From Zychaea mexicana (lineage: Eukaryota; Mucoromycota; Mucoromycetes; Mucorales; Lichtheimiaceae), in the NCBI RefSeq assembly GCF_025766255.1, contig NW_026516709.1, positions 1 through 64,000 on the forward strand: DNA of 64,000 bases, read 5' to 3'. Under the pieces are notes generated by a model that ran no database searches, was not told the DNA's origin, and saw only the letters and a list, made by a program, of their open reading frames with translations. Positions 4,735 to 34,204 of the stretch are shown here, in pieces. Made by a program: the position numbers and the translations under genes. How positions within the stretch are numbered: position 1 is the stretch's first letter; every line of letters starts with the position of its first letter.

Positions 4735-6060
4735 CTGGATTACTACCAGACCGTGGTGTCCAGCACGTCATTGACACCGAAGATGCTGACCCCGTCTCCT
4801 GAAATCCCTACAAGATGAGCCCACTCAAGTTAGATAAGCTGCGTCAACAGCTGAAAGAGTTGCTTGACTTGAAGCTCATTCGCCCAAGCTCATCGCCTTA
4901 GGGTGCACCTGTTCTGTTTGTATGCAAGAAAGATAGGTCTATGCATATGTGCGTTGACTACCGTGCAGTAAACCATTTAACTCGTCGTAACACACACCCA
5001 CTGCTGCGTATCGACAAATGTCTCGAATGATTGGCCAATGCTCGCCAGTTCACAAGCCTTGACCTCAAGAGCGGCTACTACCAAGTATGTATTCGACCGG
5101 AGGATGAGGACAAGACAGCCTTCAGCACTTGATACAGCCAGTACAGCTAGAAAGTTTTGCCATTTGGCCTACGAAATTCGCCACCGGTTTTTCAAGCCAT
5201 GATGAATAAGGCACTGGGAGATAGCCTCGATACGTGCTGCCTCGTGTACTTGGACGATCTTCTCATCTTTAGCACGAGTGATGATGAAGAAGCGCACCTA
5301 CAAGACGTTTGACGGGTACTCAAGAAACTGCATGAGGCGAAGCTGGTAGCCAACTTGAAAAAGTGTGAATTCAACAAGACCGAGTTGGAGTTCGTTGGTT
5401 ATCAAGTGTCTGCTCAAGGAATACGGCCATCCACGAAAAAGGTGCAAGCAATTCAAGACTGGCCGGTACCGACAAATGTACAAGAAGTACAGCAATTCGT
5501 GGGGTTGGCAAGCTATTACTGACGATTTTTAAAAGGCTTCAGTACACTGGCGGCACCTTTGACGGATTTGACGAAGGGTACAGGAGCGAAGAAAAGGGCG
5601 ATTGTGTGGACGCCTGAGTGCCAATAGGTTTTTGACACAATCAAGGCCAGAATGTATGACGCGCCCATCCTGATGCCACCTAATCCGGACAAGCCGTACA
5701 TGATCGAGACTGATATGTCCGACTTTAGTGCTGGTGCTGTACTATTGCAAGAAGGATCCGATGGTCTCCCGCATCCTCTAGTGCTCGAATCTAAAAAATT
5801 CTCATCTGTAGAACGATCATACCCTGTACAAGAAAGAGAAATGCTCGCTATCCTTCACGCCTTACGAATGTGGTGTTGTTTTATTGACAGGCGATAGTAT
5901 ACTATATACTCGGACCATTACCCGCTGAAGTATTTCTAGTCTAAGACAAAACCAACGCCACGGCTAATGCGATGGATAGCCGATATAGAGCTCTATGACC
6001 CAGACATCCAATACAAACCTGGTAAAAGCAACCATGTACCCGATTTGTTATCAAGACGGG
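4735..6060 (+). pseudogene. Ty3/gypsy G1 reverse transcriptase and RNase H, many nonsense codons
   Basis: In one frame the RT can be read from PDRGVQHVIDT through SLDLKSGYYQV, LPFGLRNSPPVFQ, the catalytic YLDD (about 5249-5260) and FVGYQVSAQGI, then RNase H (ETDMSDFSAGAVLLQ, about 5707) and the typical YKPGKSNHVPDLLSR end. At least nine stops interrupt it (for example near 4800, 4900, 5026, 5130, 5151, 5310, 5519, 5627 and 5895). Most are TGA where Arg (CGA) is expected in this family, or TAG where Gln or Trp is expected. That pattern fits C-to-T or G-to-A transitions. Polymerase and RNase H of a dead element, no longer translatable. Confidence 0.85.
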
Positions 6061-14103: not shown

Positions 14104-14117
14104 TGTACTATTGAATA

Positions 14118-14312
14118 CAGTATTTTCAATAAGTAATGTCGCAGCCAATGAAAATCAATGTCGCGCCCGATGAAAATCAATGTCGTTGTCCAATGGAAAT
14201 CAATGTCGCTAGCCAATGAAAATTTATGTCGCATGTCCAGAAACGGATGTCGCTTGCTTAGAAATCAATGTCGCATAGGTCAGCAAGGAATTTCTTGGCA
14301 CACTAAAAATAT
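14118..14312 (+). repeat. Left TIR of element A with seven ATGTCGC iterons
   Basis: ATGTCGC (once ATGTCGT) recurs at 14136, 14158, 14180, 14203, 14226, 14247 and 14268, that is every 21-23 bp, about two helical turns, so all copies face the same side of the DNA. The TIR ends at a TATATATA box (about 14309-14318), which would serve the transposase ATG at 14377. Iterons are the expected binding sites of the N-terminal HTH of the transposase (inference). Confidence 0.8.
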
Positions 14313-17197: not shown

Positions 17198-18926
17198 GCA
17201 AAATATGCTCGCGACACTTTCGCCTGCCTTCACTTGCATTACACATGGACCTTAGCGAGTATTACGATACGTACAATGGGAATGACAAGTACCGTCGCTT
17301 CTTCGCCGCAAATAGCCTTAAGGATTGGGGATTCTATCACTTCAAAAATCATTTTAAAAAAACAATGCGCAATCCTCCTTCGTCCAACACGCTAGAATCT
17401 TCCTACCAGAGGTGTCTCGACGCTATCCAGAAGGATTCCTCGACACCAGATAGCGTCAAGCAAGAACTAAAGGAGTTGTTAAAGGAGGTATGAACAAGAT
17501 AAGAATGATCCACGTTACCGTTTCCTCATCTTTTTCGTATTAGAACGACAATGGCACTTCGTCACCAGCAGTCTCGTCGAACACATATCACTTACACCAA
17601 GGAGATAATTCGTTCGCATTCGTCAACTCTACTAATTACGGGGCTAATATGGTTGGGAAGGAAGGTCCCGGTGACACCACCACCACCACCACCATCACAG
17701 AACCACGCTCCGAAGGGTCTGTCCTTGGCAAACGAGGTAAGTTTTCCCGTTGTGCACGTATGTGTATACTTAGAGCTGATGATCTCATACAAAAAAGCAG
17801 CAAGTTCTGAAAACCAATCCGACCAGGATACGCATCCTTTACCCGCACAACGTGCCCGAATAGTGGAGATGATGTACAACGCGCTGGCTTCGAACGAGCT
17901 ACAAAAGACTCCAGAGCCAATTACGCCCAAAGATTTTAGAAAAGCCGTGTACGAAGCTGGCGTCAAAGTGGTAAGCGCGCAGTTGGCTCATCGATAGTTG
18001 TGGATTAACATACCTTTTCTAGCTGAATAAGCAGCTGTCTCTCCAGGATGCCAGCAACCTGCGCAAGCTCCTGAACAATTTCACCGCATCTGATTCGCTT
18101 GGAGAGCAGCTGGACGTCATGTCGGCCAACCTTGCCCTAAAGATAAACTTGTCTGAAATTCACCAAGTCAACGCATTGAAGCTTTCCTTGTCACGGATCG
18201 TCGATACCGTCAATAGCTAAACTGAAAAGATATTTCGCAAGCATATTACCAATAGCAGCTTCTGGGAGCGAGTTGCAAAAGTACAAGAAATTAACCTTGG
18301 CCATGGCATGGCCCCAGCGGTCAGGGCACTTTATGGTGAAATGATTGCCTTGGGCACGGATATCCCACCTGACATGAAGCAGATGTACCAAAACGCTGTA
18401 GAATGTCAGTCGTTATCAGCTAAAGAGGCAAAGCAATTGCACCTTGAGTCAGTAGCCAAAGCTGCGCCTATGTACAAGAAACTTGATACGAAGCTTTTGC
18501 GGATCGCGATTGCCGAGGAAAAGGTGGCTCTACTGAAATCTGACGACACCCAGTGCTTGCAATTATTGGATATCCTTGAAATTGTGGCCAAGGCTTGCCT
18601 GACTGACCCCGCCGCCTCCCCTAATGACAACGACAGTAGTGAACTCACTTGCTACAGGAAGTGTACGAAAATACTTGATGAGGTACTAAACGGTAGCAGG
18701 CTGCAAATCTTCGATGGGGATACGACGTGCAAAGCCTCCAAATCGATCGCAAAAATGCATAAAAGGGTTTTTGGTTCGAACATTCCGTTGAACAAAGGAT
18801 TTGGGCGCCGGATCGATCTGATTCTTTCTGCTCAGAATGAGGAACTATCTACGAGCGAATGGAAGAGACTCAAAGTATCACCGCGAAAGTCGCTGATCCA
18901 GCAGGCCAAGAACATTAGGATGAATA

Positions 18927-19152
18927 CAGGATTTTTCCTAATGATTGGCGGGGCTTTTTTTCCCATTATGGCGGGGCTTTTTTTTCACTTTGTCGTTGGG
19001 GGTGTTTGTGATTGGCGGTGTGATTTTCGTGAATGGCAGGAGGAAAAAAATACAATGGCGGCCGAATTACAGGTTGATGGCAGAATAATAAATTCATAAT
19101 GGCGGCCGTAATTTCAGGTTGATGGCAGAATAGTAAATTCATAATGGCGGTT
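18927..19152 (+). repeat. Left TIR of element B, TGGC(G/A)G every 22 bp
   Basis: TGGCGG or TGGCAG occurs at 18946, 18969, 19013, 19034, 19056, 19078, 19100, 19123 and 19145, with a degenerate site near 18991: ten positions at 21-23 bp spacing. The partner TIR at 24926-25151 preserves the array. The regular two-turn phase points to cooperative protein binding. Confidence 0.85.
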
Positions 19153-19482
19153 TGAATTATATCATTAGCGGCATCATTTTTAAAAAATGACATTAGATAC
19201 TAAAGCAGTTCATCTCATTAAATACATCACAAACATGGGAAGATGTATGAGACATGATAATAGGAGTGGCAAGTTTCTACTAGATGATTAGCACATCACC
19301 CTTATATAGCAACATAGATGCTCTGAGAACCATAAAAGAATCGCAAAAAAAGATATCGAAAACGAAAAATAATGATCATGTGTATGTAAAAGGTTTTATT
19401 TACAATACAAGAGGTACTTCACATCACAAGAGAAACTTCAATCTTGCGAAAATTTCTTCAATCCACAAAAGCCGATCCTGCA

Positions 19483-19800
19483 TTAGAAGCAATGTCCAGC
19501 GGACTTCATTCCATTCGGCCAAAACTCGGTGAACGGTTCTTTGGTCTTCACTGGCAGCTTGACTGGTCGTCGCCAGATTACATCCAGCAGCTCCTCTCCA
19601 TCTATTTCATCTAGTAGGAAATATAGTTCTTTGTCGAAGTATACGCGATATTCGAGATCTGTTTGATGGCGCTCTATAATAGAAGTATAAACAAAAGAAG
19701 AATAAATAAGATTAATAAGAATAGATGTAATACCTTTTATTTGCAGAGCTGTGACGATGTGATACGACGTAATGAAGTAACGCCAGAGATTAAGCGACAT
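19483..19800 (-). CDS. Small acidic protein of unknown function in element B (85 aa)
   Basis: Two exons, 19734-19800 and 19483-19673, joined by a 60-bp intron with GTATTAC donor and TATAG acceptor; the sum is 86 codons including the stop. The ATG at 19800 is chosen because a TATATAAAG-like box (about 19840-19850) lies about 45 bp upstream; an in-frame ATG at 19830 would leave almost no leader. The product has an aromatic N-terminus (MSLNLWRYF) and an acidic stretch (DEIDGEELLDVIW) in the middle. No family recognised. Same strand as the next two genes. Confidence 0.55.
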   Translation of the reverse strand: MSLNLWRYFITSYHIVTALQIKGITSILINLIYSSFVYTSIIERHQTDLEYRVYFDKELYFLLDEIDGEELLDVIWRRPVKLPVKTKEPFTEFWPNGMKSAGHCF

Positions 19801-20103
19801 CTTGAGAATGAGTGAAACAATTCTTGCCATTGCAGGTATGCTGCTTTATATGTTTTTAAAATGTAACCCAAGCTCAATCTCACATGTCACTCACACCCGC
19901 ACCCACACTCATACCACAATATAAATCTATGGTTACAGGAATATATAAAAATAGTAAGACTAGATGTTATATCATATTTTTAATTGATCATTATTGCTAT
20001 CTACAACCATTTTGTCCCTGAATATTCCTATAGTCCTACTCACTCATACCACCACCATTTATCTATGACTCAAACCAGTCAAAGTAATTTTTTCCAAGAA
20101 AGC

Positions 20104-20647
20104 TTATTTATTTATTTTTTTTATTTTTTTATTTTTTATGTATCTTTGTGCTGTTGATTTCGGGATCTTTGCTTCCTCCGCTGCCTTTCGTATTGACCAC
20201 CCCATATTAAAGTAGAGGTGGATCAAGTATGCTTGTTTGGAGTCAGTATGAAAGGTTCTGTTAACCCCATAATTGTTGTTGCTGACCTGGTCTTCCTGGC
20301 TACCTTGATTATGGACCAGTTGACCTAGACAGAAGATATGTTTTTGTTACATCAGTAAACTAAAAATTAACAAGTTGCACGCATCTTTTGAATAATGGTA
20401 AAATGTGTTTGGGACGTACTGGTTTCCATTTTGTCAACTACAAGGTAAACCAGGTTGCCCAGGTCTTCTTCCGGAAGAATATCCGTAGGTGTAGCTATAT
20501 ATAATGGAAATAGATGAGTAACGCGCTGTTTTTTGATAGTAATGTTTAGTTGAACTTACTCGGATCGAATGGTTCCAACATGGATTCATCCCACAATTCA
20601 AATTCCAGAAATTTTGTAAAGGAGATGTTGTTGTTGTTGTTGTTCAT
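20104..20647 (-). CDS. Small stand-alone HTH protein in element B (127 aa)
   Basis: Three exons: 20560-20647, 20420-20494 and 20104-20324, separated by 65- and 95-bp introns with matching phase 1; 128 codons with the TAA. An Asn-run start (MNNNNNNISF), an acidic middle, then a helix-turn-helix ending: YFNMGWSIRKAAEEAKIPKS followed by TAQRYIKN and a Lys-rich tail. The HTH closely parallels that of the B transposase (AAEAGRDLLIPERTAQRYWK), so this looks like the DNA-binding domain without the catalytic domain. A TATAAA box lies at about 20670-20676. It could bind the TIR iterons and modulate transposition (inference). Confidence 0.65.
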
Positions 20648-20946
20648 TGTTACGAAAAAGATAGAGTGATTTATACATTCGGAAAATAGACTTGTCTTTG
20701 GTTTAAATAGTTTATGGTTTTCTCTTATGTAACCACATGCTTTTGGGATACAAAATAGTTACAAACGGCTTAGTTTTCTTACGCATATGCCGTTAAACTA
20801 TATTGCTGGTTTGTGACACCACCAAAAAGATCCAGTAATAGATGTTTGTAAGGTTATCTTATCCAGTATTTGTGATGATTCACAAAAATAAAGAGACAGA
20901 CTACTGTATGAAGAAAAAAAATAATTTTTTGACAAAAGAAATGCAT

Positions 20947-21417
20947 TTATTTGGTTTTCAAATGATGCTCTCGCAAAACTGCTTGACCTTCCTCAGTATC
21001 GATAAATTGCATAACCCAGCGATGCATTGTAGCTGCTGGAACTTTGGTTCTACCGTAGTCGCGTCTTTCAAGGGCACAATCTTTAATTGCTTTCTTGATT
21101 ACTTCATCATCCTTGTTCCATTTACTATATGTTCGTTTTTTGACAGTTGTCAGTGTTGTGATTTCTTCTTGGAGCTGTTCCACCAGTTGCACTAGATCTT
21201 GAACTGCCTTAACACAGGGGAGCTCGTCGACTGGTTCGTAATCTTCTTCCAGCCGCATTGCATCTAAGGTTCTTATAAATTCCTCTATTAAAGCATTAGA
21301 ATAGTGGCCAAAGGATATAATCTTCGATTATATAAACATACCAATGTAAGGGTCTTCTCCCTCACTGACATTGACAGCTTCACGTATTTCTTTATGAGAA
21401 AGGACAATGCTTGCCAT
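20947..21417 (-). CDS. Small DNA-binding-like protein in element B (137 aa)
   Basis: Two exons, 21342-21417 and 20947-21284, with a 57-bp intron (GTATGTTT donor, AATAG acceptor), giving 138 codons with the stop. An acidic N-terminal half with heptad-like Leu/Val spacing (VQDLVQLVEQLQEEITTLTT) suggests a short coiled coil, followed by a basic C-terminal half (KKRTYSKWNKDD...PAATMHRWVMQF) that resembles an HTH. A TATAAA lies about 50 bp upstream (near 21470). Divergently oriented to the gene at 22388, across the palindromic region. No named family; likely a DNA-binding dimer. Confidence 0.6.
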
Positions 21418-21544
21418 GCTGGAAAGGACTATGTAGTGAGAATTCAGACAGATAGAGTAAAAAGAAAGTTTATAATCAGAAATTTTCAGGTAGGAAATAA
21501 ATAAACTATAAGTAAGATATGATCCTTGCAAACCTACAGTACTG

Positions 21545-22215
21545 TAGAAGAATAGGGTAGAGTATCCACATGAAGATCTAGCAAGAAGCATAATGAAATG
21601 TTGCACGAAATGGGGCGGCATAAAGTACGGAAGGTGATTTCATTCCATTATCTGTATATGAAAATAAAATATAACGAAGTGTTGCACGAAATGGGACAAA
21701 AAAAATCACAGCAAAGTTTAATAGCTTGTATCCATATGAAGATCTAGCAAGAAGTATAATGAAGCGTTGCACGAAATGGGACAAAAAAAAACCACAGCGA
21801 GGATCTAGTAAGAAGTATAAAGCGTTGCACGAAATGGAATGCAATCACCCTCCGCTATTACTTTATGCCGTCCCAGTTCGTGCAACACTCCATTATACTT
21901 CTTACTAGATCCTCACACATACACGTAATTATACTTTGCTGTCGGTTTTTTGTCCCACTTCGTGCAACGCTTCATTATACTTCTTGGTAGATCCTCACGC
22001 ATATACGCTACTATGCTTTGCTGTTATATTTTATTTTCTTATTCAAACAATGGAATGGAACCACATAAGATGGAATGGAATCACCCTCCACTATTACTTT
22101 ATGCCGTCCCAGTTCGTGCAACACTGCATTATACTTCTTACTAGATCTTCACACATACACGTAATTATGCTTTGCTGTGATTTTTTTGTCCCATCTGGTG
22201 TAGCATTCATATATA
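21545..22215. repeat. Large imperfect palindrome built from 80-bp units between divergent genes of B
   Basis: Units containing GTTGCACGAA occur on the left (21600, 21681, 21766, 21824) and their reverse TTCGTGCAAC on the right (21877, 21959, 22113, plus a degenerate one near 22190), around a centre near 21848. Each unit also carries CTTCTTACTAGATC-like and TTTTTTGTCCCA-like words. The arms separate the minus gene starting at 21417 from the plus gene starting at 22388, so this is the shared upstream region of two diverging genes. An old inverted pair of MITEs would look similar. Confidence 0.7.
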
Positions 22216-22322
22216 CTCTATGTTGAAACTTCAAGTCTATGCGTTATAATGGAATGTTGTCATCTGTTGTAGATACCATTGTGGATTGCTTAATTATATA
22301 TATCTGTAGGTACGGAACAAAA

Positions 22323-22336
22323 AAGTATATAAACCG
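22323..22336 (+). promoter_or_regulatory. TATA box of the plus-strand HTH gene
   Basis: AAGTATATAAACCG about 55-60 bp upstream of the ATG at 22388. Confidence 0.5.
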
Positions 22337-22387
22337 ATGATTCAAATCCATTGCTTGTAATAACTCATTCTAAATTTACTATTAATC

Positions 22388-22849
22388 ATGTCCGATATCA
22401 TTTCTACAAACGACTCCTCCCTCGACCTCATGCAGTTTGAATTAGACGTGGACATGCAAGGCAGTCTCGATGTATACAATACTCAGGAATTGAGCAAGGC
22501 TCTTCCTTTTGGTGACTTTGAAGAAGACACTACAACATCACCATCATCATCATCATCATCAGCATCGCGGTCTCCATCCTCCTCCGCCTCCTCTGCCTCC
22601 TCTGCCCCATCATCGCCATCACTACCACGAAGACGGCAACGAGCACCCCGCCGCGGGTACAACCAAGACGAGGTCGTAGTGGTGCTGCGCGCCTATTTTT
22701 GGGATAGGCTTACAATCGAGCAAGCCGGCGCCAAGGTGAAGATGCCGAAGGGAACGCATCAAGACTCATCTGCATCTACCGCCCCCACATGCCACCACCA
22801 CCCAAACGGCCCCGTGCTCCCAAGAGTAACCACTTTTGACGAAGGTTAA
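22388..22849 (+). pseudogene. Ser-rich small HTH protein of element B, probable frameshift near its end
   Basis: An acidic N-terminus, a Ser/Ala/Pro-rich run (about 22540-22625), a basic patch (RRRQRAPRRGY) and then an HTH: VVVLRAYFWDRLTIEQAGAK and VKMPKGT. The listed frame runs on to 22849 with unlikely His/Pro sequence, whereas the frame shifted by one base after KMPKGT reads ASRLICIYRPHMPPPPKRPR and stops near 22841, which mirrors the KSTAQRYIK ending of the gene at 20104-20647. So one base seems lost near 22755. It lies directly upstream of the transposase, in the same orientation. Confidence 0.5.
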
Positions 22850-23199
22850 TGATGATATTCTGGAGGCAGCTTTACAACATCCGTAGTTTTTTTTTATTAA
22901 TAAATATTTTTTTCTCTGCTGGTTGTCTCTAAACAAATACTTGCTTTATGTAACAATGGTGGGATACTTTTTATAATTAGCTACAAACTGTATCTTGCTT
23001 AGTGGGTTTAACATGGGTGACATTATTGCGAGTTGATCTGATGGATTTAAAAAAACTACTATTTTTTGTCCCATTTGGTGTTACCTTACAAGTTCTGTTC
23101 AATAACAAATTCACAGAATTGAAAAGTATGAATCATTTTATTTATTGTACTTGTCCATACAGTATTATTATCACTCGATTTTTTACATCAACTATCACC

Positions 23200-24759
23200 A
23201 TGTTATCCATCAAAAATTTAACGCTACCATACAATACTGACATTGATATGCATGAAGAGGAGATGGAAGTAGACGACGTGTACCAAATCGTATCTGATGA
23301 ATTTAGTGGCCATACTGGTGGTGGACACTCCCTTGTATCGATGACCAAGATAAAAACTACATCGCAGGTACTTACAAAATATATTGGTCAATAATTCTGT
23401 AGAACATGATATGTATTCTATATATTTTATTAATTAATGGTTGGTAATTCATAGGAAATTTCTACATCCAAGGTAATCGATCCTCCAACGTCCACTTCGC
23501 CTGGTACTGAAGCCGCAGAAAACCAAACGGAATCAGTGAAAAAGGGAAGGGGAAGACCTCGCAAAAACCCTCCAAAAGAGCCTGTCATCCCAAAAAGTAT
23601 GCTACTTACTATTACTAAACCTTACTTAATAACATTAAACCTCTAGTTGCTTCTGATATCTAATCCAAAACTCTTAATTCCTATAGGAGCTCATCGAGTG
23701 TATCGAGATCCAGAAATTATCCAATTGATCGATAGAATCCAAAATGTCACTTTAAACGCTGCAGAGGCTGGGCGCGACTTGTTGATCCCTGAACGAACCG
23801 CACAGCGATACTGGAAACGATTTGTCGACGGTGAGCCATATCTCCCAAGTACAATGGGTAAATCTCCCGGTCCTCCACCAACCTTGACACCCGAACACAC
23901 AGCATTTCTCCAGGCGTATTACGATACCAAGTCAGATGCGACCCTCAAAGAAGCACAGCAATTGCTTGTTGATCGATTCGGCATCAGCATCACTCAAAGT
24001 GGCCTCCAGAAGCACCTTGTTAGCAAATGCGGGCTTACTATGAAGAAGTTGGAACGGATCTCTGAGTACCGCAACTCCGATGAAACGATCGCTTCCCGGA
24101 TCAACTGGGCACACGCATTTGAAGCCAGTGGCATTAATTACCACAAATGCGTCTTTATTGATGAGGCTGGCTTCAACATGCACATCAAGCGTAGCTTTGG
24201 TCGATCGAGACGAGGTGAGCCCGCCAAGGCCTTGGTTTCTAAGTCGCGTGGGGTCAATATTACGATCTTGGGTGCCATCACTGGTGAAGGTGTAATCAAC
24301 TTGAGTCTCCGGAGACCTCAAGCGGTTGTCGCTTCCAAGAAACGCAAGACGCGTGACGGTGAAGAAAAGGTGATGGGCAAAATCGGCACTCGGGCGGAGC
24401 ATTTTATCGAATTTTTGGAAGTGATGATGAAGGTGCTCACCGAAAATGGTATGGGTGGAAGGACCTTGGTATTGGATAATGCCGCTATCCACAAGACTGA
24501 TGAAGTTCGGGATGCCATTGCCAAGCAAGGATTCGAGATCCTCTTTCTCCCGCCCTACAGCCCATTCCTCAATCCAATTGAGGAATTTTGGTCAAAGCTC
24601 AAGGCAGGTGTCAAACGCCATTTACTGACCACAGACGACACCTTGCTGCCGCGCATCATCAACTCCGCCCATGAAGTCACCGCCCAAGATTGCCAAGGAT
24701 GGATTCGCCACTCCCTTACGTTTGTGCCTAGGTGTATAGAAGGAGAGAAGATGCTGTAG
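23200..24759 (+). CDS. DD34E Tc1/mariner transposase of element B (460 aa), apparently intact
   Basis: Three exons: 23200-23367, 23455-23596 and 23687-24759 (phases fit; 460 codons plus stop). The leader is acidic; exon 2 ends in an AT-hook-like KKGRGRPRKNPPK. Exon 3 starts with the HTH (IIQLIDRIQNVTLNAAEAGR, then IPERTAQRYWK) and continues into the catalytic domain: first Asp in CVFIDEAGF, second in LVLDNAAIH, Glu in FLNPIEEFW, 34 residues after the second Asp. KKRK near 24335 may be a nuclear localisation signal. No stop or frameshift was seen, unlike A, C and D. It would cut at the TIRs of B and paste at TA. The ATG at 23200 is chosen over 23129 because the upstream codons are low-complexity. 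Confidence 0.85.
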
Positions 24760-24925
24760 TTTTTTTTCATATTTTATATGTTTTTTTACTACCCTTCTAT
24801 ATTTTTTCCTTTTACTTTTTTTTTCATATATATATATATGTTTTTTTTAATAAAATATAGAGTTGTCGAAAATCATTAACTGTCATGCTGAGAAAAAGAA
24901 GGCAAAACGATTACCATAATTACCC

Positions 24926-25151
24926 AACCGCCATTATGGATTTACTATTCTGCCATCAACCTGAAATTACGGCCGCCATTATGAATTTATTATTCTGCCA
25001 TCAACCTGTAACTCGGCTGCCATTGTATTTTTTTCCTCCTGCCATTCACGAAAATCACACCGCCAATCACAAACACCCCCAACGACAAAGTGAAAAAAAA
25101 GCCCCGCCATGATGGGAAAAAAAGCCCCGCCAATCATTAGGAAAAATCCTG
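24926..25151 (-). repeat. Right TIR of element B
   Basis: Inverted partner of 18927-19152, ending GGAAAAATCCTG before TA. Contains the same TGGC(G/A)G array on the minus strand. Roughly 98% identity by eye. Confidence 0.85.
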
Positions 25152-26832: not shown

Positions 26833-26934
26833 ATTTTTAGTATGCCAAGAAATTCCTTGCTGACCTATGCGACATTGATTTCTAAGCAAGCGACATCCGT
26901 TTCTGGACATGCGACATAAATTTTCATTGGCTAG
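26833..26934 (-). repeat. Right TIR of element A, inner part
   Basis: Reverse complement of about 14209-14310 with one mismatch, ending in CTAG, the target duplication of gypsy D. The outer part continues at 34003. Confidence 0.85.
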
Positions 26935-34002: not shown

Positions 34003-34097
34003 CTAGCGACATTGATTTCCATTGGACAACGACATTGATTTTCATCGGGCGCGACATTGATTTTCATTGGCTGCGACATTACTTATTGAAAATACTG
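34003..34097 (-). repeat. Right TIR of element A, outer part
   Basis: Exact reverse complement of 14118-14209 and ends GAAAATACTG followed by TA. Confidence 0.85.
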
Positions 34098-34204
34098 TAC
34101 TTGAAAGCACAGTAATAATTGTTTTGAGACAACAACGGAATATGCACACGTTCCTGACAGTGAAAAAACACAAACAAAAAACATGTTGCTATTTCCAAAT
34201 CCGG

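What the first reader, a model, noticed from the sequence alone, without database searches (positions are those of the whole stretch)
18927..25151. Element B: a 6.2-kb DD34E Tc1/mariner-type transposon with four accessory genes
Perfect TA-flanked, 226-bp TIRs enclose an apparently intact transposase and four additional small genes, three of them spliced and on the opposite strand. Known Tc1/mariner elements are usually 1.3-2.5 kb with one gene. At least two, and probably three, of the accessory proteins look like stand-alone HTH DNA-binding proteins, suggesting a transposon that encodes its own regulators. This is the strongest candidate here for an undescribed system.
Basis: partly seen in the sequence, partly recalled or inferred. 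Interest (0 to 1): 0.88.

Follow-up and report, generated by a model that had tools for sequence, protein, structure and literature searches.

The report
Fungal mariner transposon carrying regulator genes
A 6.2-kb jumping gene of the Tc1/mariner type in a mould (very probably Zychaea mexicana) carries, besides its transposase, a conserved set of three small, probably DNA-binding protein genes and its own repeat array, which suggests a transposon that brings along its own control system.

Summary
The element is real: 226-bp TIRs (98%), TA at both ends, an uninterrupted copy of the target site elsewhere, a DD34E transposase, and ten TIR-bounded near-identical copies in this genome (very probably Zychaea mexicana). 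Of four proposed accessory genes, three (acc2, acc3, acc4) recur in the same order and orientation in subfamilies B, C and D. acc3 and acc4 show purifying selection between subfamilies and occur with this transposase in Circinella. acc1 is not supported, and acc4 is frameshifted in the window copy. acc2 and acc4 have helix-turn-helix domains related to the transposase's own; acc3 is helical, of unproven fold. Each subfamily has its own repeat array between divergent acc3 and acc4; in B and C, not D, its motif recurs upstream of the transposase. B and C share TIRs and catalytic domain (dS 0.07), but accessory genes and arrays are diverged (dS about 1), and gene trees conflict: modules were exchanged. 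Best reading: element-encoded, subfamily-specific DNA-binding regulators acting on the array, working like plant Spm TnpA or VANDAL VANC without being their kin. Regulation is inferred, not shown. New variant of a known kind.

The parts
18927..25151 (+). whole element (B copy), 6,225 bp, flanked by TA on each side
18927..19152 (+). left TIR, 226 bp, with 6 TGGCGG/CCGCCA sites in the outer 230 bp
24926..25151 (-). right TIR, 226 bp, with 5 TGGCGG/CCGCCA sites in the outer 230 bp
19483..19830 (-). acc1: proposed spliced gene, NOT supported (frame destroyed in subfamily C, no match in D)
20104..20647 (-). acc2: exons 20647-20560, 20494-20420, 20324-20104; 127 aa; C-terminal HTH
   Evidence: gene model; conserved by position in C and D; HTH profile match to transposase
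20947..21417 (-). acc3: exons 21417-21342 and 21284-20947; 137 aa; coiled-coil-like long helix and helical C-terminal domain
21557..22268 (.). inverted repeat array of TGTCCCA...TCGTGCAAC units between divergent acc3 and acc4
22388..22886 (+). acc4: frameshifted in this copy; 165-166 aa, Ser-rich linker, HTH and conserved C-terminal tail in 8 of 11 B copies
23062..23081 (+). array-like motif TTTTTTGTCCCATTTGGTGT, about 130 bp before the transposase ATG
23200..24759 (+). transposase: exons 23200-23367, 23455-23596, 23687-24759; 460 aa; acidic N-terminus, AT-hook-like stretch, HTH, DDE_3 (DD34E)
23876..23876 (.). approximate B-C exchange junction inside transposase exon 3, between HTH and catalytic domain

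Best explanation
A cut-and-paste Tc1/mariner (DD34E) transposon family whose members carry a conserved cassette: three small genes (acc2, acc3, acc4), a repeat array between the divergent acc3 and acc4 genes, and the transposase promoter. Shown: anatomy, copies, conservation of the three genes, selection on acc3 and acc4, exchange of modules between subfamilies. Inferred: acc2, acc3 and acc4 are DNA-binding regulators that bind the array and like sites before acc3, acc4 and the transposase, and switch the element's own transcription, as activators or anti-silencers or as repressors (the sign is not resolved). Protein and array diverge together, so each subfamily would mainly control itself, while transposase and TIRs stay alike between B and C.
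For: Same order and orientation in B, C and D, with the acc3 intron at the same codon. dN/dS between subfamilies 0.17-0.50 for acc3 and 0.28-0.35 for acc4. HTH profile links: acc4-transposase E 7e-8, acc2-transposase 9e-7, acc2-acc4 5e-9; the four sub-threshold acc2 hits elsewhere in the genome (E 0.02-0.07) fall on HTH ends of other Tc1 transposases. Array at the same place in all three subfamilies but unlike in sequence, its motif before the transposase in B (0 of 200 shuffles reach it, by a small margin) and C (2 of 200), pointing towards the gene it precedes. Transposase HTH identical in B and C (45/45) with TIRs about 96% alike, while acc4, acc3 and acc2 HTH regions are 28/46, 18/41 and 11/42: accessory proteins co-diverge with arrays, not with TIRs.
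Against: No expression, binding or functional data. D shows no array motif before its transposase (126 and 65 of 200 shuffles reach the best match). The motif shared by all three arrays (TGTCCCA) is only slightly beyond letter-swap controls: 3 against at most 2 in 15 controls at 7 bases, a tie at 6 bases, nothing at 8. acc3 has no profile or significant fold match to an HTH. No accessory protein tested reaches a Pfam cut-off. Within-subfamily ratios are uninformative or relaxed: D-D pairs 0.43 and 0.61; among B copies acc3 has 0 synonymous and 5 nonsynonymous changes.
Confidence: 0.55

Rival explanations
1. The accessory proteins are transposition cofactors: they bind the TIRs, which are rich in TGGCGG repeats, and help to build the transposase-DNA complex, like the Myb-like protein of PIF/Harbinger.
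For: acc2 and acc4 HTHs are related to the transposase HTH; TIRs carry clustered TGGCGG sites (B: 6 and 5 in the outer 230 bp, 1 in the 5.8 kb between).
Against: B and C have nearly the same TIRs and the same transposase HTH but strongly diverged accessory HTH regions.
Confidence: 0.2
2. The array is mainly a hairpin source of small RNAs or a chromatin signal that silences the element, and the accessory proteins act elsewhere, for example on host genes.
For: Arrays of B and D are long inverted repeats (D: 744 columns at 86%).
Against: The array of C is mainly tandem, not inverted; motif copies before the transposase in B and C.
Confidence: 0.1
3. The small genes are captured passengers without function for the element.
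For: No known function; no Pfam family above cut-off; acc4 broken in 3 of 11 B copies.
Against: Conserved set and order in three subfamilies, dN/dS well below 1 between them, recurrence beside this transposase in a second genus.
Confidence: 0.1
4. The small genes belong to a separate element nested between the TIRs.
For: None found.
Against: At 60 nt or more the TIRs are the only inverted pair inside the element (ungapped method); no aligned copy has TIRs plus transposase with the cassette cleanly missing; C and D have the same layout.
Confidence: 0.02

Closest known systems
Fungal Tc1 transposons such as Tc1-MP1 (Mucor) and Tc1-OP1 (Ogataea), PMC9977792 (abstract start and passages seen)
   Same: Tc1 transposase, DD34E in Tc1-MP1, TIRs, TA-type ends, Mucorales hosts
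   Different: One ORF each; 1,688 bp (Tc1-MP1) and 5,659 bp (Tc1-OP1, called the largest reported there) against 6,225 bp and at least three more genes here
Mariner elements that encode Fanzor1, nuclease or methyltransferase besides the transposase, PMC3627910 (passages seen)
   Same: Tc1/mariner with TIRs, TA target and extra proteins; related elements share TIRs and transposase but differ in the rest
   Different: Extra proteins there are nuclease, methyltransferase or Fanzor1; here small HTH-type proteins and a repeat array; no Pfam match to those enzymes
VANDAL transposons and VANC anti-silencing proteins of Arabidopsis, PMC10398659 (abstract, outline and passages seen)
   Same: Element-encoded proteins diverged between related subfamilies together with short motifs in noncoding repeats
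   Different: VANDALs are Mutator-like; binding and demethylation are demonstrated there and not here; no sequence relation seen
Spm/CACTA with TnpA (mentioned in PMC10398659; rest recalled)
   Same: DNA-binding protein beside the transposase, acting on the element's own activity
   Different: CACTA transposase and ends; no homology seen
PIF/Harbinger two-protein elements, PMC4890758 (passages seen)
   Same: Separate DNA-binding protein encoded beside the transposase
   Different: Other transposase superfamily and 3-bp target; there both proteins are needed for transposition, untested here
Lambdoid phage immunity regions (recalled, no call)
   Same: Regulator genes and cognate sites exchanged as a block onto a shared backbone
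   Different: Analogy of layout only

Membership tests
IS630/Tc1/mariner superfamily | DDE transposase of the Tc1/mariner type with D-D34-E spacing | tested here: met
   Pfam DDE_3 4.8e-27; D262, D367, E402 conserved in 10 aligned transposases; profile hits Sleeping Beauty 1e-6 and SETMAR 0.006 in the PDB
IS630/Tc1/mariner superfamily | TA target duplicated on insertion | tested here: met
   TA at both ends in 13 of 13; empty site with 2-bp overlap; one end of L031 has TG
IS630/Tc1/mariner superfamily | terminal inverted repeats | tested here: met
   226 bp, 98%
   6.2 kb, transposase plus three conserved genes
VANDAL/VANC | Mutator-like transposase | tested here: not met
   DDE_3 transposase, TA target
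VANDAL/VANC | accessory protein of the VANC family | tested here: inconclusive
   no Pfam family above cut-off in the accessory proteins scanned; no VANC sequence was compared
VANDAL/VANC | subfamily-specific repeated motif in noncoding DNA | tested here: met
VANDAL/VANC | protein binds the repeats and removes silencing | not testable with these tools
   needs binding and methylation or expression assays
PIF/Harbinger | Harbinger transposase and 3-bp target | tested here: not met
   DDE_3, TA target
PIF/Harbinger | Myb-like DNA-binding partner protein | tested here: inconclusive
Fanzor1/nuclease/methyltransferase mariner elements | Fanzor1, nuclease or methyltransferase gene in the element | tested here: not met
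   no such Pfam match in the window ORFs and relatives scanned

The most novel reading that the evidence does not exclude
A eukaryotic Tc1/mariner family with exchangeable 'immunity' cassettes: accessory HTH proteins with their cognate array and promoters form a self-specific control unit which, with the N-terminal half of the transposase, recombines onto a shared catalytic domain and shared TIRs. A subfamily with a foreign cassette (C) would then escape the control of a resident one (B), much as lambdoid phages swap immunity regions or VANDALs diversify VANC systems.
Probability: 0.3. Interest if true: 0.82.

Novelty: new variant of a known kind. Interest (0 to 1): 0.62.

Why it matters
Tc1/mariner elements are the usual example of a transposon that needs only one protein (recalled). 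A mariner lineage that keeps three extra genes and a private repeat array in two fungal genera would mean that self-encoded control arose in this superfamily too, in parallel with the plant Spm and VANDAL systems. Two natural subfamilies in one genome, with nearly the same TIRs and catalytic domain but different cassettes, make protein-operator co-divergence and module exchange directly testable.

Tried and rejected
acc1 as a gene: not supported. Nested second element: rejected. A first transposase dN/dS run used a failed anchor and is void; one search replaces it. A first guess of the C transposase start (element position 5826) was the wrong frame; the aligned start lies near 5786. Array motif before the transposase in D: not found. 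acc3 as kin of the other HTHs: no profile match and no significant fold match. acc4 fold matches are generic HTHs, best E 0.19. Locus C57 holds only C-type end sequence (about 0.53 kb) and C281 only about 0.13 kb of TIR in the pieces fetched; not followed further. Ten paper searches listed no Tc1/mariner element with HTH accessory genes; they cover open-licence PMC papers only, and for most listed papers I saw only the listing. PMC5751038, a survey of fungal cut-and-paste transposons, is not held.
Full report
What is there. The window lies in a 50.3-Mb eukaryotic assembly. Contigs C76 (81,910 bp) and C237 (346,526 bp) have exactly the lengths of contigs that carry public Zychaea mexicana proteins matching the elements found there, so the host is very probably Zychaea mexicana (Mucorales, Lichtheimiaceae). 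Arms 18927-19152 and 24926-25151 are 98% complementary. A genome search with the TIR listed 40 scored hits of 57 candidates. Ten copies have both TIRs: the window, C291, C289, a second on C247, C146, C124, C118, C68, C6 and C123; the aligned stretches are 98-99% identical. C123 carries a large insertion, and C106 lacks the left end. TA flanks both ends in 13 of 13 elements checked (10 B, C237, C36, C299); one end of L031 has TG. Two loci hold the flanking gene without the element; in L035 the flanks meet with a 2-bp overlap, in L036 there is a 4-bp duplication at the site.

Genes. The transposase model has three exons and 460 aa, with DDE_3 at 4.8e-27. Its last exon is one stop-free frame in 6 of 12 B loci (window, C6, C289, C99, C124, second C247 copy); three have one stop and three are split. 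acc3 exon 2 is open in 11 of 11 B loci and acc2 exon 3 in 10 of 10; acc4 is intact in 8 of 11, broken in the window, C68 and the second C247 copy. acc1 is open in 10 of 10 B copies, but its frame is destroyed in C.

Conservation. Diverged elements fall into C (C237, C132, C272, C82, pieces on C57 and C106; TIR about 96%) and D (C36, C299, C76, C101, C115; TIR about 80-83% over the outer 137 bp). One C locus (C237) and four D loci (C36, C76, C299, C101) hold acc2, acc3 and acc4 in the order of B; the other loci are cut by contig ends or by what I fetched, and several D genes carry stops or frameshifts. The acc3 intron sits at the same codon in B, C and D. NG86 dN/dS: acc3 0.50 (B-C), 0.22-0.23 (B-D), 0.17-0.22 (C-D); acc4 0.32, 0.31-0.33, 0.28-0.35. 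dS is high (0.9-2.1), so ratios are rough. Close pairs say little: D-D 0.43 (acc3) and 0.61 (acc4); among B copies, synonymous/nonsynonymous counts are 0/5 (acc3), 8/11 (acc4), 2/3 (acc2 exon 3) and 8/13 (transposase).

Where else. In this genome all 18 acc3 matches lie in B, C or D loci. acc4 gives 32 matches, 29 in such loci and 3 weak ones (E 0.02-0.07) elsewhere. acc2 gives 10 B matches and 4 weak ones (E 0.02-0.07), all 4 at the HTH end of other Tc1 transposases. In the protein database acc3 finds 8 proteins (4 Circinella minor, 1 C. umbellata, 1 Zychaea, 2 unnamed) and acc4 finds 4 (2 Zychaea, 1 of each Circinella; only the best 8000 candidates were scored). C. minor INT45_013965 (acc3) and INT45_013961 (transposase, 74%) share contig length 39,555; INT45_009652 and INT45_009645 share 44,717; INT45_008648 (acc3) and 008647 (acc4) share 6,368 with consecutive tags; C. 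umbellata 566622 (acc4) and 566623 (transposase) share 902,207 with consecutive tags. This rests on lengths and tags, as that DNA was not at hand. As a control, two of the three next-closest transposase loci of this genome (45-46% identity; the third, C102, was not fetched) have TIRs about 1.9 kb apart around one gene.

Domains. Profile comparison links acc4 with the transposase HTH (probability 94.6, E 7e-8), acc2 with it (91.4, 9e-7) and acc2 with acc4 (95.9, 5e-9); acc3 matches neither. Alignments are small (3-10 rows), and the D row of acc2 was read through a frameshift. The acc4 model (mean pLDDT 64.5) has a three-helix unit near pLDDT 90 at residues 84-122 and is otherwise low; its PDB matches are generic HTHs (prob 0.99, best E 0.19). 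The acc3 model (mean pLDDT 80.6, pTM 0.41) is all helical with a 30-residue helix and has no significant match. No accessory protein reaches a Pfam cut-off.

Array. Between divergent acc3 and acc4 each subfamily has a repeat array of unlike sequence: inverted in B and D, mainly 112-bp tandem units in C. In B, TGTCCCA with (C/G)GTG after it lies twice on the minus strand on the acc3 side, twice on the plus strand on the acc4 side, and once on the plus strand about 130 bp before the transposase ATG. In C, GT(T/C)CC(A/G)T(A/G) occurs 17 times: 11 plus in the array, 3 plus at 5552-5644, some 140-235 bp before the transposase ATG, 2 minus on the acc3 side, and 1 at the acc2 start codon. Units are tandem copies, so this is evidence from three places, not 16. 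Shuffle tests of the region before the transposase: B 0 of 200 on each strand but by a small margin, C 2 and 23 of 200, D 126 and 65 of 200, that is, nothing in D. TGTCCCA is common to all three arrays, only slightly beyond letter-swap controls.

Module exchange. B-C identity is 0.51-0.88 from before the transposase ATG to element position 4950 and 0.92-1.00 from there to the right end. B-C dS is 1.68 in exon 1, 0.73 in the HTH part and 0.07 in the catalytic part, against 1.54, 0.90 and 2.00 for B-D; acc3 and acc4 B-C dS are 0.94 and 1.20. The left end is intermediate (0.76-0.99 per window up to position 750). In the acc3 tree Zychaea B goes with C. minor P0001 and Zychaea C with P0003, P0005, P0006; holding B and C together is rejected (AU p 0.0016). 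Circinella transposases form one group (100/96 with 5 rows, 95/96 with 3), B and C Zychaea transposases are 96% identical but their fork is unresolved, and holding Zychaea B with P0013 or C with P0014 is rejected (p 6e-54, 2e-6). I chose the groups after seeing similarities, so the p values are indicative. The acc4 tree is weak. Transfer between genera could explain part of this.

Mechanism (inferred). B and C share the transposase HTH (45/45) and TIRs (about 96%), but accessory HTH regions (28/46, 18/41, 11/42) and arrays differ. So the accessory proteins more likely read the array than the TIR. The array lies where acc3 and acc4 start, and its motif recurs before the transposase in B and C. 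This fits element-encoded regulators of the element's own transcription, sign unknown. VANDAL/VANC has the same logic of diverged protein plus diverged repeat motif (PMC10398659; abstract and passages), with no homology seen.

Verdict. By tested features the element is a Tc1/mariner; its gene content is a new variant. It is longer than the 5,659 bp that PMC9977792 (passages) calls the largest of the superfamily, but mariner elements with other extra proteins are known (PMC3627910, passages).

Noticed in passing
L020; L021+L022; L024+L025 (C244, C251, C4): Elements of 9.0, 10.7 and 12.1 kb whose ends match the B TIR at about 73-84% but which show no B-type DNA inside. L021+L022 reads as a long palindrome with like ORFs at both ends.
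   Followed up: partly
G000, e.g. C235:202574 and 217783; C68:300118 and 308555; C52:80647 and 86468: Other Tc1-like transposases of this genome often occur as inverted pairs some 3-16 kb apart, as if the gene lay inside very long inverted repeats.
   Followed up: no
L026:1175-1215 (C106): A C-type element end abuts a B copy at a TA: a C element appears to have inserted into B.
   Followed up: partly
L015 and L016 (C123), at window-equivalent 20507-20516: About 5 kb of other DNA inserted in the acc2 intron of a B copy, with short inverted ends and an apparent 9-10-bp duplication.
   Followed up: no
L019 (C237), acc3 exon 2: About 1.1 kb of extra DNA next to a repeated ATCAAAAT splits acc3 in this C copy.
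   Followed up: no
L036, near 2205 (C116): A 4-bp tandem duplication lies exactly at the TA that B used as target in the window; whether it is an excision footprint is open.
   Followed up: no
window 18221-18919, 14104-14310, 26833-26934, 34003-34111: B interrupts a gene without Pfam match whose intact relatives lie on C59 and C116; in all three places a Tc1-like transposase lies about 3.6-3.8 kb upstream, and inverted pairs surround the site, so B sits inside another repeat.
   Followed up: partly
L013 and L014 (C124, C118): Two B copies share the same right flank but have different left flanks, possibly a rearrangement or duplication.
   Followed up: no
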